Source: Myxococcus stipitatus
GTDB lineage: Bacteria > Myxococcota > Myxococcia > Myxococcales > Myxococcaceae
Reading direction: 5' to 3'
DNA length: 64,000 nucleotides
Assembly (NCBI RefSeq): GCF_021412625.1
Contig: NZ_JAKCFI010000014.1
Coordinates: 1 to 64,000, forward strand
Shown: positions 18,565 to 27,128 of the stretch, piece by piece
Layout of the letters: each line of letters begins with the position of its first letter
Numbering within the stretch: position 1 is the first letter of the stretch
Made by a program: the position numbers and the translations under genes
The notes under the pieces: model-generated
The model's database searches: none
What the model was told of the DNA's origin: nothing
What the model saw: the letters and a program-made list of their open reading frames with translations, nothing else

Positions 18565-19509
18565 ATGAGCGACCGCTCCACCATCCGTCGTGGCCAGACC
18601 ACGCTGCCCCGCGCCACGCAGACCTCGCAGAACACGCCCGTGGTGAAGAACACCACCTCCGAGAAGGTGGTGAAGGACACGAACACCGGCGTGCAGACGT
18701 CCTTCAAGGACGGCCGGCTCCAGAGCCACTTCGAGCGTGAGAAGAGCACCTCGCAGAACTGGAACACGAGCTACAGCACGGAGTCCGAGCACGCCTCGAC
18801 CGGCAAGGTGTCCGGCGCGATGGCGGGCCTGCTGGGCCAGCTGCCCAAGGTCGGCGTCAACGGCGAGTTCACCAAGGGCGCCGCGGTGGCGAAGTACGAG
18901 GGCGGCTTCGGTGACGCGAACAGCGTGGCCCAGGGCTACGGCAAGGTCAGCCTGCTCGAGGCGGAGCTGAAGGGCAGCGGCGAGGTGGGCATCGAGGGCG
19001 GCAAGCTGTTCGCGCGGGGCGACCTGGACGCGAAGGCCACCCTGGTGGACGCCGAGGGCTACGTCCGCGCGGGCGTGGGCCCGGTCCAGGCGGAGCTGCA
19101 GGGCAAGGCGTGGGTGGGCGCCAAGGCCGGTCTGCACGGCGAGGTGACGGCGGACCCCATCAACGGCAAGTACGCGGCCCGCGTCGGTGGTGACGCCTTC
19201 ATCGGCGCGCGCGCCGGTGTGACGGGCAACGTGAAGCTGGGCGACTTCGGCGGCGCCACGGGCCGCGCGGAGGCCTGGGCCGGCGTGGGTGTCTCGGCTC
19301 GCGCCGAGGCCAGCTGGGACAACGGCCGCTTCAAGGCCCGCGTGGACCTGGGCGCCGCGCTCGGTGTCGGCTTCAAGCTGGGCTTCGACGTCGACATCAA
19401 CTTCAAGAAGATTGGCGAGGCCGTCGTCGACGTCGTCAAGAAGCCGGTCGAGACCATCAAGAATGTGGTCAACTCGGTCGGGAACTTCTTCAAGGGGCTG
19501 TTTGGCTGA
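18565..19509 (+). CDS. Gly/Ala-rich protein with amphipathic C-terminus
   Basis: A 314-residue protein of unknown function with no signal peptide. The first ~75 residues are polar, Ser/Thr/Lys-rich. Residues ~85-270 alternate Gly/Ala with charged and hydrophobic residues (GEVGIEGGKLFARGDLDAKA, AKAGLHGEVTADPINGK, GNVKLGDFGGATGRAEAW), suggesting many short beta strands; comparable stretches occur in large secreted toxin-like proteins (recollection, not checked). The last ~35 residues predict an amphipathic helix (VVDVVKKPVETIKNVVNS, ending FFKGLFG) reminiscent of membrane-active peptides. Its TGA overlaps the ATG of the TPR gene by one base, so both are made together. Confidence 0.75.
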   Translation: MSDRSTIRRGQTTLPRATQTSQNTPVVKNTTSEKVVKDTNTGVQTSFKDGRLQSHFEREKSTSQNWNTSYSTESEHASTGKVSGAMAGLLGQLPKVGVNGEFTKGAAVAKYEGGFGDANSVAQGYGKVSLLEAELKGSGEVGIEGGKLFARGDLDAKATLVDAEGYVRAGVGPVQAELQGKAWVGAKAGLHGEVTADPINGKYAARVGGDAFIGARAGVTGNVKLGDFGGATGRAEAWAGVGVSARAEASWDNGRFKARVDLGAALGVGFKLGFDVDINFKKIGEAVVDVVKKPVETIKNVVNSVGNFFKGLFG

Positions 19510-20690
19510 TGGCGGAGACCGCCAGGTACGACGCACTGCTTGCCGCCGGGGAGCTGGACCAGGCACGCCGGGAAGCCGAGGCCGCGCTGAAGCGCAACGC
19601 CTCGGACCGGGCGGCCAAGGTCGTGCTCGCCCGGCTGGCGGCGTTCGATGGCAACGAGGCGCAGGCCGAGTCCTGGCTGGTGGGGATGGGGCAGGACGAG
19701 CCCGACGTGCAGCTGGTGCGCGCGGCCCTGCTCACCCGGCGCGGGGACGCGGGCGGGGCGCTGGCGCTCTACCGCAAGGTGACCCAGGCGCGGCCAGACC
19801 GCGCGGATGGCTGGTTCGGTCAGGGCTACCTGCTGGCGGACGCGGGTGACAACGCGGGGGCGCAGGCCGCGCTGGAGCGCGCGGTGGCCCTGTCGCCCAA
19901 GACGGCCATCCACCACTTCCACCTGGGGCGTGTGCTCTTCGCCCAGGAGAAGTTGAAGGAGGGCTTCGAGCACCTCCAGGAGTCGCTGCGCCTCAACCCC
20001 AAGCACGGCCCCAGCTACCTGGTGCTGGCCGTGGCCCTCCAGGCCGGCGGTGAGCTGGACGCGGCCGAGGAGCTGCTCGTCACCGGGTTGTCGGCGTTGC
20101 CGGACGACCCGTACCTGCTCAACGGGTTGTGCAACGTGCGGCTGGCGCGCGGCAACCTGAGCGGCGCGGTGCAGGTGGCGGAGGCGCTGGCGCGCGTGGA
20201 GCCGGACAGCCCGGCGGCGCAGGCGAACCTGGCGCGGCTGCGCATGGCGCAGGGGCGGCTGAAGGAGGCGCTCGAAATCTGCCGCAAGCTCGCCTCGCGC
20301 GGGCAGGCGACGGCGCACAGCCGCATGGTGGAGGCGATGTCGCTGGAGGCGCTGGAGCCGGTGGACATCCCGGCCGCGCTCGCCGCGTGGCGCGAGGCGG
20401 TGAAGCTCGCCCCCGAAGACTGGGCGCCCGCAAACAACCTGGGCAACCTGCTGATGCGCATCCCCGAGGACGAACTCCCGGGCGCGGGCCAGCAGGCCGC
20501 CGAGGTGCTGGAGGAGGCCCACCGCCGCGCGCCGGACCGCCCGGAGCCGGTGCTCAACCTCGCGCTGGTCAGCGCGCGGCTGGGCGACAAGGACGCGGCG
20601 CGCGCGCACGCGACGGCGCTGCTGGCCTTCCCGCGTCTCGACCCCGAGTGGCGCGAGCAGGCCGAGCGCCTCCTCAAGGCGCTGGGGTGA
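19509..20690 (+). CDS. tetratricopeptide-repeat protein
   Basis: A 393-residue, almost entirely TPR protein beginning MAETARYDALLAAGELDQA. Repeats of the 34-residue W/L-G-Y-A-P pattern are visible, for example PDRADGWFGQGYLLADAGDN, HLGRVLFAQEKLKEGFEHL and NLARLRMAQGRLKEALEICR. There is no signal peptide or membrane segment, so it is a cytoplasmic scaffold or chaperone-like protein. The ATG at 19509 overlaps the stop of the Gly/Ala-rich gene, making it the likely partner; a chaperone role for that protein is inference. Confidence 0.85.
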   Translation: MAETARYDALLAAGELDQARREAEAALKRNASDRAAKVVLARLAAFDGNEAQAESWLVGMGQDEPDVQLVRAALLTRRGDAGGALALYRKVTQARPDRADGWFGQGYLLADAGDNAGAQAALERAVALSPKTAIHHFHLGRVLFAQEKLKEGFEHLQESLRLNPKHGPSYLVLAVALQAGGELDAAEELLVTGLSALPDDPYLLNGLCNVRLARGNLSGAVQVAEALARVEPDSPAAQANLARLRMAQGRLKEALEICRKLASRGQATAHSRMVEAMSLEALEPVDIPAALAAWREAVKLAPEDWAPANNLGNLLMRIPEDELPGAGQQAAEVLEEAHRRAPDRPEPVLNLALVSARLGDKDAARAHATALLAFPRLDPEWREQAERLLKALG

Positions 20691-20882
20691 TGGGGCGGGT
20701 CCCGCGTGCGTCCTCGTGACGCGCGCGGGTGTCGGCCGCCTCGTGTGTCTGGGCCGCCGTGGACGTGCCCCTCGCGTCGCGCGATGCCGATGGGACGCTC
20801 CGAGGCTCCTGTGCGCTGGTGGCGGCATGAGGGGCCCGCGAGCCGACGTGGCGAGGATGTCCGTTCCCGCTGATACGGGGGC

Positions 20883-21245
20883 GCGAGCCGCTTCATCGCC
20901 AGGCACAACGTGCCGGTCGCTGTGTCACCGCGCGCGAGGTCTCACGTGGCGCCTTGCTTCAGTGCATGCGTGCGGCCCGGTCTGCGTGTCACGGAGCGCG
21001 AGGTCTCACGCGGCCACCACGTCGGCGAGCCGCTTCATCGCCATGAGAGTCGCCCCGGTCGGTGTGTCACCGCTGACGAGGCCGCACGCGACGACGGCGG
21101 CGCATCGCTTCAGCGGATGCGTGCGGCCCCGGTCGGTGTGTCACCGCTGACGAGGCCGCACGCGACGACGGCGGCGCATCGCTTCAGCGGATGCGTGCGG
21201 CCCCGGTCGGCGTCTCACCGCTCGCGATGTCTCACGCCGCCACGT
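20883..21245. repeat. tandem degenerate copies of the response-regulator 3' end
   Basis: GCTTCA-type anchors recur at 20890, 20956, 21032, 21107 and 21181, and the same position in the gene itself is at 21255; spacings are 66, 76, 75, 74 and 74 bp. Units 21061-21134 and 21135-21208 are almost identical. On the minus strand the unit around 21032 reads LMAMKRLADVVAA-stop, against LLMKQLANVAA-stop at the true gene end. The rest of this 541-bp gap (20691-20882) shows no gene. Confidence 0.8.
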
Positions 21246-21600
21246 TGGCGAGTTGTTTCATCAGCAGGCGGATGAGCTCGACGGGGTGGATGGGCTTGGG
21301 GAGGAGCTCCGCGCCGTAGCGGATGGCGACGGGCAGCAGGTCGTCGAGCTCCTCGTGGCCGGTGAGGAAGATGAACGGCGCGTGGCATTCCTTCAGCTCG
21401 CGCATGGCCACGAGCACGTCCGCGCCATTCATCGCCGGCATGTTGTAGTCGCAGAGGATGGCGGAGATGGCCGTCAGGTCCGTCTGGAACGCGGCTTCGG
21501 GCGACTGCACGGTGACGACCCGGTAGCCCGCGCTCTGGAGGATGTCCGTCACCAGCGACAGGACGAAGAGGTCGTCGTCAATCACCAGCACGGTCTGCAT
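21232..21600 (-). CDS. single-domain response regulator
   Basis: A 122-residue receiver domain alone, CheY-like, acting by phosphorylation-dependent binding. Acidic pocket DDD (residues 8-10), phospho-acceptor Asp51 in LCDYNMPAMNG, Thr80 in FLTGH and Lys102 in LLPKPIHP are all present, so it should be functional. No output domain and no adjacent histidine kinase exist, so its partner is unknown. The gene end is copied in degenerate form in the repeat array just downstream. Confidence 0.93.
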   Translation of the reverse strand: MQTVLVIDDDLFVLSLVTDILQSAGYRVVTVQSPEAAFQTDLTAISAILCDYNMPAMNGADVLVAMRELKECHAPFIFLTGHEELDDLLPVAIRYGAELLPKPIHPVELIRLLMKQLANVAA

Positions 21601-21675
21601 CGCGCCTCCTCCGAGAAAGCCCGGCCTATCCTATGAGCCGAGCCAGCCCGGTGAGTAGCCGCGCGCCGCGCTTCG

Positions 21676-23034
21676 TCAGCGCGCGGGGGTGACGGGTCGT
21701 GATTGCCCCGGGCCCGGCGAGGGAATCAGCACCAACTCCTCCTGGGGAGGAATCAGGTACTCGGCGCCGGTGTCGGTGACGACGGCCATCTCCTCCACGG
21801 AGAGCACCCGCAGCACGTCCGGCCCGCCGTCGTGCCAGGCGAAGTAGCCGTCGAAGGCGAACACCTGCCCCGCGCGCAGCGGCCGCGTCGCCGCGCCCTG
21901 CTTCGGCTTCTCCTTGAGCCCGCCCGACAGCGCGGGGCCCACGTCATGCGCCCAGTAGCCCACCGGGTGGCCGGTGCCGAACATCGTCATGGGCACGGAG
22001 CCGGCCTGCTCGTTCCAGACGCGCTGGGCCTTGTCCACGTCCCACCCGCTGACGCCGGGCTTCATCGCGGCCAGCACCACGCGGCTGCCCCGCTTGCTCT
22101 TCTCCCACTTCTCCAGCGCCTCCTTCGGCGGCTGCGTCTGGCCCGGCGCCAGCACGTAGGCGAAGCGCTGGATGTCCGTGACCCACATGTTGCCCACGCG
22201 GATGCCGAAGTCGGTCTGGATGAAGTCCCCCGGCTGGATGACGCGCTCGGTGGCGTGCGAGTGCCCGCGCAGGGGGCCGCTGTTCACGTTGGGGTTCTGG
22301 TCCGGCGCCCACGCGTCGCCCACGCCCAGCTCCGCCATGCGCTTCTTGAGGAAGCGCGCCACGTCCGCGTCGCGCGTCTGCCCCGGCACCACCGTGGCGT
22401 ACGCCTCGATTTCGAGCCGCGCCGTCAGCGCCGCGGCCTTGCGCAGGATGTCCACCTCCTCGGGCAGCTTCACGGACAGCCACTCGGACACCACGTCCTC
22501 GGACGACACCAGCTTCTTGCGCAGCGCGGGCGGCAGCGCCTTCTCCAGCGCCGCGCGCTGGGACGACGACAGGCCGTCCGCCACCGTCACGGACGTGGAG
22601 GCGTTGATGGCGATGCGCGCGGGCTTCGCCGCGGCCAGCCGCGTGGCCACCTGCGCGTAGAGGTCCGTGCCCCGCTCCAGCGCCACCACCTCGTCCACCG
22701 GCGCCACCTCCTTCAGCGCGGTGGCCTCGCTGGCGGGAGACAGCGCGAGCGCGCGCACCGTGTCCCCCTGCCGCAGGAAGAGGAAGGCCGCGGTGCCACC
22801 CGCGTTCTCCCCGCCCACGTGGATGGCCAGCGGGTCGTTGTCGTTCTCCCGGCAGAACACCACCCAGGCGTCCACGTTGGCGCGCGCCATGGCCTGGGGC
22901 AGCAGCTTCTGGATGCGCTCCTTGCGGATGCGCGGCCAGCTCTGCTCGGAGGCGATGGCGTCGCCCGCGGCGGCCTGGGCCAGGGGCGCGGAGAGGAGCA
23001 GGGCGGAGAGGAGGGCGGACCGTGCGCGCTTCAT
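21676..23034 (-). CDS. exported M24 metallopeptidase (Xaa-Pro aminopeptidase-like)
   Basis: A 452-residue creatinase-fold peptidase with a signal peptide (MKRARSALLSALLLSAPLAQA). The N-terminal domain has VDAWVVFCRENDNDPLAIHVGGE. In the C-terminal pita-bread domain the metal ligands can be placed: Asp in IQTDFGIR, Asp in VTDIQRFAY, His in FGTGHPVGYWAHDVGP, Glu in SVEEMAVVTD and Glu in PPQEELVLIP. The family removes N-terminal residues before proline. The signal peptide places it in the periplasm or outside, unlike cytoplasmic PepP. ATG 23034 is chosen because it begins the signal peptide. Confidence 0.9.
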   Translation of the reverse strand: MKRARSALLSALLLSAPLAQAAAGDAIASEQSWPRIRKERIQKLLPQAMARANVDAWVVFCRENDNDPLAIHVGGENAGGTAAFLFLRQGDTVRALALSPASEATALKEVAPVDEVVALERGTDLYAQVATRLAAAKPARIAINASTSVTVADGLSSSQRAALEKALPPALRKKLVSSEDVVSEWLSVKLPEEVDILRKAAALTARLEIEAYATVVPGQTRDADVARFLKKRMAELGVGDAWAPDQNPNVNSGPLRGHSHATERVIQPGDFIQTDFGIRVGNMWVTDIQRFAYVLAPGQTQPPKEALEKWEKSKRGSRVVLAAMKPGVSGWDVDKAQRVWNEQAGSVPMTMFGTGHPVGYWAHDVGPALSGGLKEKPKQGAATRPLRAGQVFAFDGYFAWHDGGPDVLRVLSVEEMAVVTDTGAEYLIPPQEELVLIPSPGPGQSRPVTPAR

Positions 23035-24168: not shown

Positions 24169-26946
<2,778 letters not shown>

Positions 26947-26971: not shown

Positions 26972-27006
26972 GCCCCTCTTCCCCACGCGGGAGGAGGGGC
27001 TTCTTC
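26972..27006 (+). terminator. gyrA terminator
   Basis: A 12-bp stem (GCCCCTCTTCCC with GGGAGGAGGGGC, one G-U pair) with loop CACGC is followed by TTCTTC, 26 bp after the gyrA stop. Confidence 0.75.
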
Positions 27007-27128
27007 ATGGCCGCGCGGAGCCGCGACGATGGGGGGACGGACCGTCGAGGTGGGACGGCCCCTCGCGCGAGGGGCGGGCGTGGAGGTCGGTGGAGGGGAG
27101 GAGGGATTTCTTCATGGCCGCGCGGAGC
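27001..27128. repeat. 21-bp direct repeat flanking an 18-bp palindrome
   Basis: TTCTTCATGGCCGCGCGGAG (+C) occurs at 27001-27021 and again at 27108-27128. Between them lies the perfect palindrome GCCCCTCGCGCGAGGGGC (27058-27075). The repeats lie in the gyrA-PfkB intergenic space; no gene is visible there. Confidence 0.6.

What the first reader, a model, noticed from the sequence alone, without database searches (positions are those of the whole stretch)
20883..21260. Tandem degenerate copies of a response regulator's own 3' end
Downstream of the CheY-like gene, five 66-76 bp units carry GCTTCA anchors at 20890, 20956, 21032, 21107 and 21181; the gene's own equivalent is GTTTCA at 21255. The unit near 21032 reads on the minus strand as LMAMKRLADVVAA-stop, against LLMKQLANVAA-stop in the true gene. 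Two units (21061-21134, 21135-21208) are nearly identical. This suggests repeated duplication of a gene terminus, possibly as a regulatory or RNA-structured element, or as material for C-terminal variation.
Basis: seen in the sequence. Interest (0 to 1): 0.65.

Follow-up and report, generated by a model that had tools for sequence, protein, structure and literature searches.

The report
Stuttered gene tail in a Myxococcus
In one Myxococcus species a short stretch around the stop codon of a signalling gene was copied head-to-tail several times into the spare DNA behind the gene; it looks like ordinary, harmless duplication rather than a working element, although similar duplications lie behind other genes of the same genome.

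Summary
Behind the CheY-like gene (21232-21600, -), a unit of about 74 bp (gene's last ~30 nt, stop codon, ~45 nt of flank) recurs four times (20902-21191), plus a fragment. The post-stop part of each full unit beats 1000 of 1000 shuffles; the coding tail is clearly kept only in the unit at 20966-21043. Strong multi-unit matches occur in 1 of 27 genus genomes, at one locus. Six relatives with the same convergent neighbour have a 55-84 nt spacer, not 541 nt. Two units differ from the source about as much as neutral sites differ from M. dinghuensis; the other two differ more. Little RNA structure and no C-terminal length change goes with it. It is not unique: in a 16% sample of the genome 10 of 1259 gene ends carry stop-spanning tandem copies, but windows lying wholly in the downstream flank score as often. 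Best reading: neutral serial tandem duplication in an unconstrained spacer between converging genes.

The parts
21232..21600 (-). stand-alone receiver-domain (CheY-like) response regulator, 122 aa, source of the repeat
   Evidence: ORF; Pfam PF00072 E 5.7e-17; one match at E <= 1e-40 in each of 27 genus genomes
21192..21264 (-). unit U0: the gene's own end, stop codon (21232-21234) and first flank
   Evidence: (nhmmer 5.9e-19 in window)
21118..21191 (-). unit U1, 70/74 identical to U2
21044..21117 (-). unit U2
20966..21043 (-). unit U3, the only one that clearly keeps the coding tail (reads LMAMKRLADVVAA-stop)
20902..20965 (-). unit U4, shortened (tail part partly missing)
20883..20901 (-). 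fragment U5, identical to 21025-21043 of U3; significance marginal
   Evidence: family D3; nhmmer E 1.8, below threshold
21151..21205 (.). inverted repeat, 13-nt arms 21151-21163 (U1) and 21193-21205 (U0 flank), 92% complementary; by sequence the same arms recur 74 nt lower at about 21077-21089 and 21119-21131
   Evidence: I6; the lower copy read
20701..20729 (.). GC-rich hairpin next to the TPR gene's stop; 25 of 34 positions of this stretch match the hairpin stretch of the M. dinghuensis spacer; probable terminator of the convergent pair (inferred; no T run)
   Evidence: (20691-20770, z -3.47)
19509..20690 (+). convergent neighbour, TPR-repeat protein, 393 aa
   Evidence: adjacent in 6 relatives

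Best explanation
A lineage-specific, degenerate minisatellite produced by serial short tandem duplication (replication slippage or unequal exchange; this step is inferred) in the spacer between two converging genes. The duplicated segment happened to start in the last ~30 nt of the response regulator and run through its stop into the flank. Because the first copy keeps the complete gene and stop, the protein is unchanged and the extra copies are free to drift. One later 74-bp event made the near-identical U1-U2 pair. Shown: repeat structure, single locus, absence from the relatives examined, gene end as the likely source, unchanged protein length, similar duplications behind other genes. Inferred: the mutational mechanism, the order of events and the absence of function.
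For: Spacer 541 nt here against 55, 55, 76, 84, 58 and 57 nt in the six relatives with the same neighbour. Unit model: five hits at E 8.9e-14 or better at this locus, next in the own genome 0.0039; in 14 of 26 relatives there is a weak match at E <= 0.01, in 7 of them (G025, G012, G003, G004, G005, G008, G016) at the regulator's own single 3' end, including the best relative hit overall, 2.5e-5. Short stretches of the post-stop flank are shared: 18 of 20 nt with L050, 10 of 12 with L051. U0-U3 and U0-U4 differ by 15-18%, close to the 15-21% at four-fold sites between this species and M. dinghuensis (207/244 and 48/61 identical). Own-genome sample, rate of tandem similarity per 80-nt window: 0.032 around stops and 0.036 in pure downstream flank, against 0.008 in coding ends, 0.008 upstream of genes, 0.006 around starts: the stop is not a target, downstream spacers are permissive. 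In M. xanthus mutation accumulation 27 of 39 indels were single-unit changes in tandem repeats, 21 of them insertions out of 22 insertions in all (PMC11069108, passages seen).
Against: U0-U1 and U0-U2 differ by 25-30%, more than drift of that age alone suggests; part of the excess lies where U1 has an arm of the inverted repeat. Stop-spanning duplications lean to convergent neighbours (7 of 438 against 3 of 820 co-directional, Fisher p 0.038), which neutrality alone does not predict, though gap length was not controlled. Random positions inside genes scored 40 or more as often (6 of 566) as gene ends (13 of 1596), so the contrast with coding DNA appears only in the later positional profile near free gene ends. 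The G009 sample shows no such duplication at free ends (0 of 31). The M. xanthus lines had insertions of only 1-16 bp and the passage reports no larger structural change seen, so a 74-bp duplication was not among their events.
Confidence: 0.8

Rival explanations
1. The array is a multi-hairpin transcription terminator or insulator for the convergent pair; units add stems that stop read-through.
For: The four relatives' spacers that were folded with shuffles hold a strong hairpin (z -4.79, -3.25, -4.74, -2.55; the two others, G003 and G005, were folded without shuffles). A 13-nt-arm inverted repeat spans U1 and U0 and 21118-21222 folds with z -2.42. Convergent setting.
Against: The M. dinghuensis hairpin has its likely counterpart at 20701-20729, outside the array. 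Other array stretches fold no better than shuffles: 21150-21231 z -0.18, 21076-21157 z -0.96, 20966-21017 z -0.31, 20902-20950 z 0.34; whole array z -1.31. Only one terminator-like site in 20500-21750, on the + strand at 21235-21250 inside the gene's end, shuffle mean 0.3.
Confidence: 0.1
2. A dispersed repeat family (REP/BIME/MITE-like) inserted next to the gene and only resembles its end.
For: Short GTGACA / TGTCTCA-like words recur in other spacers (seen by eye, not counted). Weak unit-model matches lie elsewhere in several genomes.
Against: Single locus in the own genome by BLAST and unit model. In 7 relatives the regulator's own end matches the unit model.
Confidence: 0.03
3. A reservoir for C-terminal change of the response regulator.
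For: Elsewhere in the genome (G000:C1:191292-192896) a comparable unit lies inside the reading frame, and sequence matching the post-stop flank reads as SDAVTGH in the protein.
Against: Regulator length 121-122 aa in 27 of 27 genomes; period 74 shifts the frame; the gene's own stop precedes every copy.
Confidence: 0.03
4. Assembly artefact of short reads at a repeat.
For: The genome is a draft of 47 contigs; U1 and U2 are near-identical.
Against: All unit pairs other than U1-U2 differ by 11-30%, so mis-assembly could at most change the count of the youngest unit; the array lies inside a 202-kb contig.
Confidence: 0.04

Closest known systems
Bacterial minisatellites / VNTR loci (recalled; no dedicated paper read)
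   Same: head-to-tail units of tens of bp, a young near-identical pair among older degenerate copies, one locus, lineage-specific
   Different: the first unit contains the end and stop codon of a conserved gene; copy-number variation between strains could not be examined
Simple tandem repeat slippage in Myxococcus xanthus mutation accumulation lines (PMC11069108, passages seen)
   Same: gain of whole tandem units is the main insertion class
   Different: mutated motifs there are 1, 3, 5 and 16 nt; here about 74 nt
Other stop-spanning tandem duplications in the same genome, e.g. G000:C1:335847-336845, G000:C2:259509-260813, G000:C3:151683-152198
   Same: gene tail + stop + flank copied directly downstream
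   Different: different sequences and, in these three, about two copies; C1:335847 is much younger (53 of 55 columns identical)

Membership tests
Tandem repeat array (minisatellite) | head-to-tail units beyond chance | tested here: met
   TRF score 321-328, period 74; 0 of 1000 shuffles for each of U1-U4
Tandem repeat array (minisatellite) | copy number varies between strains (VNTR) | not testable with these tools
   no second strain of the species at hand; no multi-unit match in the 26 other genus genomes
Duplicated gene 3' terminus | gene end is the source: relatives hold one copy of it and no array | tested here: met
   shared flank stretches are short (18/20 and 10/12 nt)
Dispersed repeat (REP/BIME/MITE) | several unlinked copies per genome | tested here: not met
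Structured regulatory RNA | folding clearly better than shuffles, or a known family | tested here: not met
   whole array z -1.31 / 0.19; one sub-stretch z -2.42; Rfam best 21 bits against gathering 53
Intrinsic terminator array | stem followed by a T run in each unit | tested here: not met
   one terminator-like site in 20500-21750, not one per unit
Intrinsic terminator array | RNA 3' ends map to the units | not testable with these tools
   needs Term-seq or RNA-seq

The most novel reading that the evidence does not exclude
In this Myxococcus lineage short tandem duplications (periods about 60-110 bp) accumulate behind genes, more so between converging genes, and repeatedly carry the gene's tail and stop codon with them. 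This provides spare stop/flank modules and sometimes turns former flank into new C-terminal protein sequence, as may have happened at G000:C1:191292-192896. The response-regulator array would be one frozen stage of such a genome-wide process, driven for example by head-on transcription.
Probability: 0.15. Interest if true: 0.5.

Novelty: new member of a known kind. Interest (0 to 1): 0.27.

Why it matters
By itself it changes little: the gene and protein are intact and no function is indicated. It shows how a gene's end can be copied without harm because the first stop protects the protein, and the sample around it suggests that spacers behind genes, unlike those in front, gather such duplications. 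That could be tested on whole genomes as a measure of constraint or of mutation at converging genes.

Tried and rejected
Structured RNA: folds of the whole array on both strands and of five array stretches and Rfam gave nothing beyond one moderate fold over 21118-21222. Dispersed element: rejected. Hits to window 21009-21043 in other genomes lie in varied reading frames when a part of them is translated (10 loci); most likely chance coding resemblance. The spacer between the array and the TPR gene has only weak short matches elsewhere in the genus (query 20685-20890: 7 of 27 genomes counting the own; best non-self E 2.3e-6 over 59 nt) and no unit remnant above threshold (nhmmer); its origin stays unexplained.

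'The stop codon is a duplication hot spot' was considered and rejected. The raw excess (13 of 1596 gene ends at score 40 or more, null 0 of 7980; 5' ends 5 of 1596, null 1 of 7980) looked striking, but random positions inside genes reach 40 in 6 of 566, and the positional profile gives the same rate in pure flank as around the stop. Corrections to my own counts: of the 9 own-genome 'span' ends, two (W 24247-26946 and C3 240166-240522) do not straddle the stop, leaving 7 of 179; of the 4 in G003, two are a tandem pair of tRNA-like sequences and one is flank only, leaving 1 of 53. The profile did not exclude tRNA genes. Of the 13 hits, 12 straddle the stop; one own hit (C3 181138-181233) is a doubtful 31-aa frame and falls out of the strict count by length. 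Strict count (score 36 or more, straddling by 6 nt or more, tRNA neighbourhoods excluded for 3' ends, target within 320 nt): 10 of 1259 own 3' ends and 2 of 1259 own 5' ends (Fisher p 0.038); both 5' cases lie beside TRF arrays that my caller left as non-coding, possibly missed genes. In G009 1 of 297 each, at neighbouring genes. Gene calls come from my own codon-bias script, not an established caller. Without the window, own counts are span 7 of 168 and flank 11 of 168.

Literature: searches were seen as listings (some capped: 10 of 27, 8 of 10, 5 of 7 shown); no listed title concerned such arrays; PMC9684338 was seen in passages and not used as evidence. One search shows wrong protein ends for loci where the gene lies on the minus strand; one search replaces it. 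One search failed on a file name and was rerun. One search was a meaningless query sent by mistake and is not used.

Full report
Check of the observation. All six anchors are at the stated positions. Tandem Repeats Finder gives period 74 with 3.7 copies over 20948-21227 and 97% over 21052-21222. Read from the gene (minus strand), the unit is: end of the response regulator, TGA, then about 45 nt of flank. Five units align: U0 (the gene's own end, 21192-21264), U1, U2, U3, U4; a fragment lies near 20883-20901. Against 1000 dinucleotide shuffles each and 496 other segments of the window, U1 to U4 are far beyond chance. The coding-tail portion on its own is significant only in U3; in U1, U2 and U4 the match rests on the flank.

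Where it sits. The gene (122 aa, receiver domain) converges with a TPR protein gene (19509-20690). The genome has 10.12 Mb in 47 contigs and its relatives are Myxococcus; the nearest named one in the data is M. dinghuensis (regulator 93% identical; TPR protein 95%). In the six relatives where the TPR gene was found beside the regulator (M. qinghaiensis, M. eversor, M. llanfairpwll..., M. dinghuensis, and unnamed G003 and G005) the spacer between the two stops is 55, 55, 76, 84, 58 and 57 nt; here it is 541 nt. In the other 20 genus genomes no TPR match was found within the fetched locus (about 1.5 kb either side where the contig allowed).

Origin. BLAST finds the array once in the own genome; a unit model gives five hits at E 8.9e-14 or better there and 0.0039 next. 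Over 27 genus genomes, 14 of 26 relatives have a match at E <= 0.01; in seven (G025, G012, G003, G004, G005, G008, G016) it includes the regulator's own single 3' end, in the others it lies elsewhere; the best relative match, 2.5e-5, is a regulator end, the best elsewhere 4.8e-4. The end MKQLANVAA occurs in 7 of 27 genomes including the own, the close ones; the KRLADVVAA reading of U3 occurs as regulator end in none, so U3 looks derived. Short stretches of the post-stop flank are shared with relatives (18 of 20 nt with L050, 10 of 12 with L051; not tested against chance). The M. dinghuensis spacer has a GC-rich hairpin; a stretch here at 20696-20729 matches it at 25 of 34 positions and also folds well. 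If these are the same element, the array grew between the stop and the old hairpin. Another ~150 nt (20730-20882) of new spacer is not explained by the unit.

Age. U0-U3 and U0-U4 are 60/71 and 47/57 identical, U1-U2 70/74. Four-fold sites between this species and M. dinghuensis are identical at 207/244 (TPR gene) and 48/61 (regulator). U3 and U4 are thus about as diverged from the gene end as neutral sites since that split, and the U1-U2 event is younger. This is an approximate comparison, not a dated tree. U1 and U2 differ from U0 by 25 and 30%, more than this; part of the difference creates one arm of a near-perfect inverted repeat, which a template switch could do (inference).

Function tests. 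The array folds no better than shuffles on either strand (z -1.31 and 0.19). Of five array stretches one is notable, 21118-21222, z -2.42. Rfam gives nothing near threshold. One weak terminator-like site is found, on the + strand in the gene's end. The protein is 122 aa in 20 and 121 aa in 7 of 27 genomes.

How ordinary it is. I sampled 1.65 Mb (16%) of the own genome plus 396 kb each of G009 and G003, with gene calls from a codon-bias script. In the own genome 10 of 1259 gene ends carry a stop-spanning tandem copy, against 2 of 1259 start-spanning ones. Examples: a gene whose tail is copied at 53 of 55 columns (C1:335847-336845) and a thymidine-phosphorylase-like gene (C2:259509-260813; name recalled from its sequence, not searched). 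The profile around 179 free 3' ends shows the same rate around the stop (0.032 per window) as in the flank (0.036), and four to six times less in coding ends, upstream spacers and around starts. Ends with any downstream-flank hit: 15 of 179; upstream-flank: 5 of 370; Fisher p 9.4e-5. Against this, random positions inside genes, searched over a longer target, scored as often (6 of 566) as gene ends (13 of 1596), so coding DNA as a whole also holds tandem repeats. My reading is that duplications are tolerated or arise behind genes in general, and the gene tail is included when the segment happens to begin there. G003 has flank hits at 5 of 53 free ends and span hits at 4 of 53, but two of the span ends are a tRNA-like pair and one is flank only; G009 has none (0 of 31). 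Seven of 438 convergent against 3 of 820 co-directional own ends carry a stop-spanning copy (p 0.038), without control for gap length.

Verdict. The array is real, lineage-specific among the genomes examined and derived from the gene end. The most economical account is serial neutral tandem duplication in a spacer that tolerates it. Unit gain is the main insertion class in M. xanthus mutation accumulation lines, though with units of 16 nt at most (PMC11069108, passages). Mechanism and lack of function are inferred.

Noticed in passing
G000:C1:192810-193057 (gene 191292-192896, +): 67-nt array at the end of a gene (zinc-ribbon-like by eye); one unit lies inside the frame, so that sequence matching the post-stop flank reads SDAVTGH near the C-terminus. 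The M. dinghuensis ortholog (L187) ends ...SAVPAK without it. Possible flank-to-protein conversion; direction of change not proven.
   Followed up: partly
G000:C1:335847-336845, G000:C3:151683-152198, G000:C2:259509-260813, G000:C1:109032-110819, G000:C3:161669-162856, G000:C1:737822-738625, G000:C3:125159-126211, G000:C3:387386-387625: Further stop-spanning tandem duplications behind genes, offsets 60-108.
   Followed up: partly
window 26989-27021 and 27096-27128: A 33-nt sequence repeated with two mismatches in the spacer behind the gyrase-A-like gene (24247-26946; name by eye), not spanning the stop.
   Followed up: no
window 20730-20882: About 150 nt of extra spacer absent from the six relatives and not made of the unit; only short weak matches in other Myxococcus genomes.
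   Followed up: partly
spacers between regulator and TPR gene in L048, L049, L050, L051: Each holds a strong GC-rich hairpin (z -4.79, -3.25, -4.74, -2.55); those of L048-L050 resemble one another, that of L051 is a different sequence resembling window 20696-20729.
   Followed up: partly
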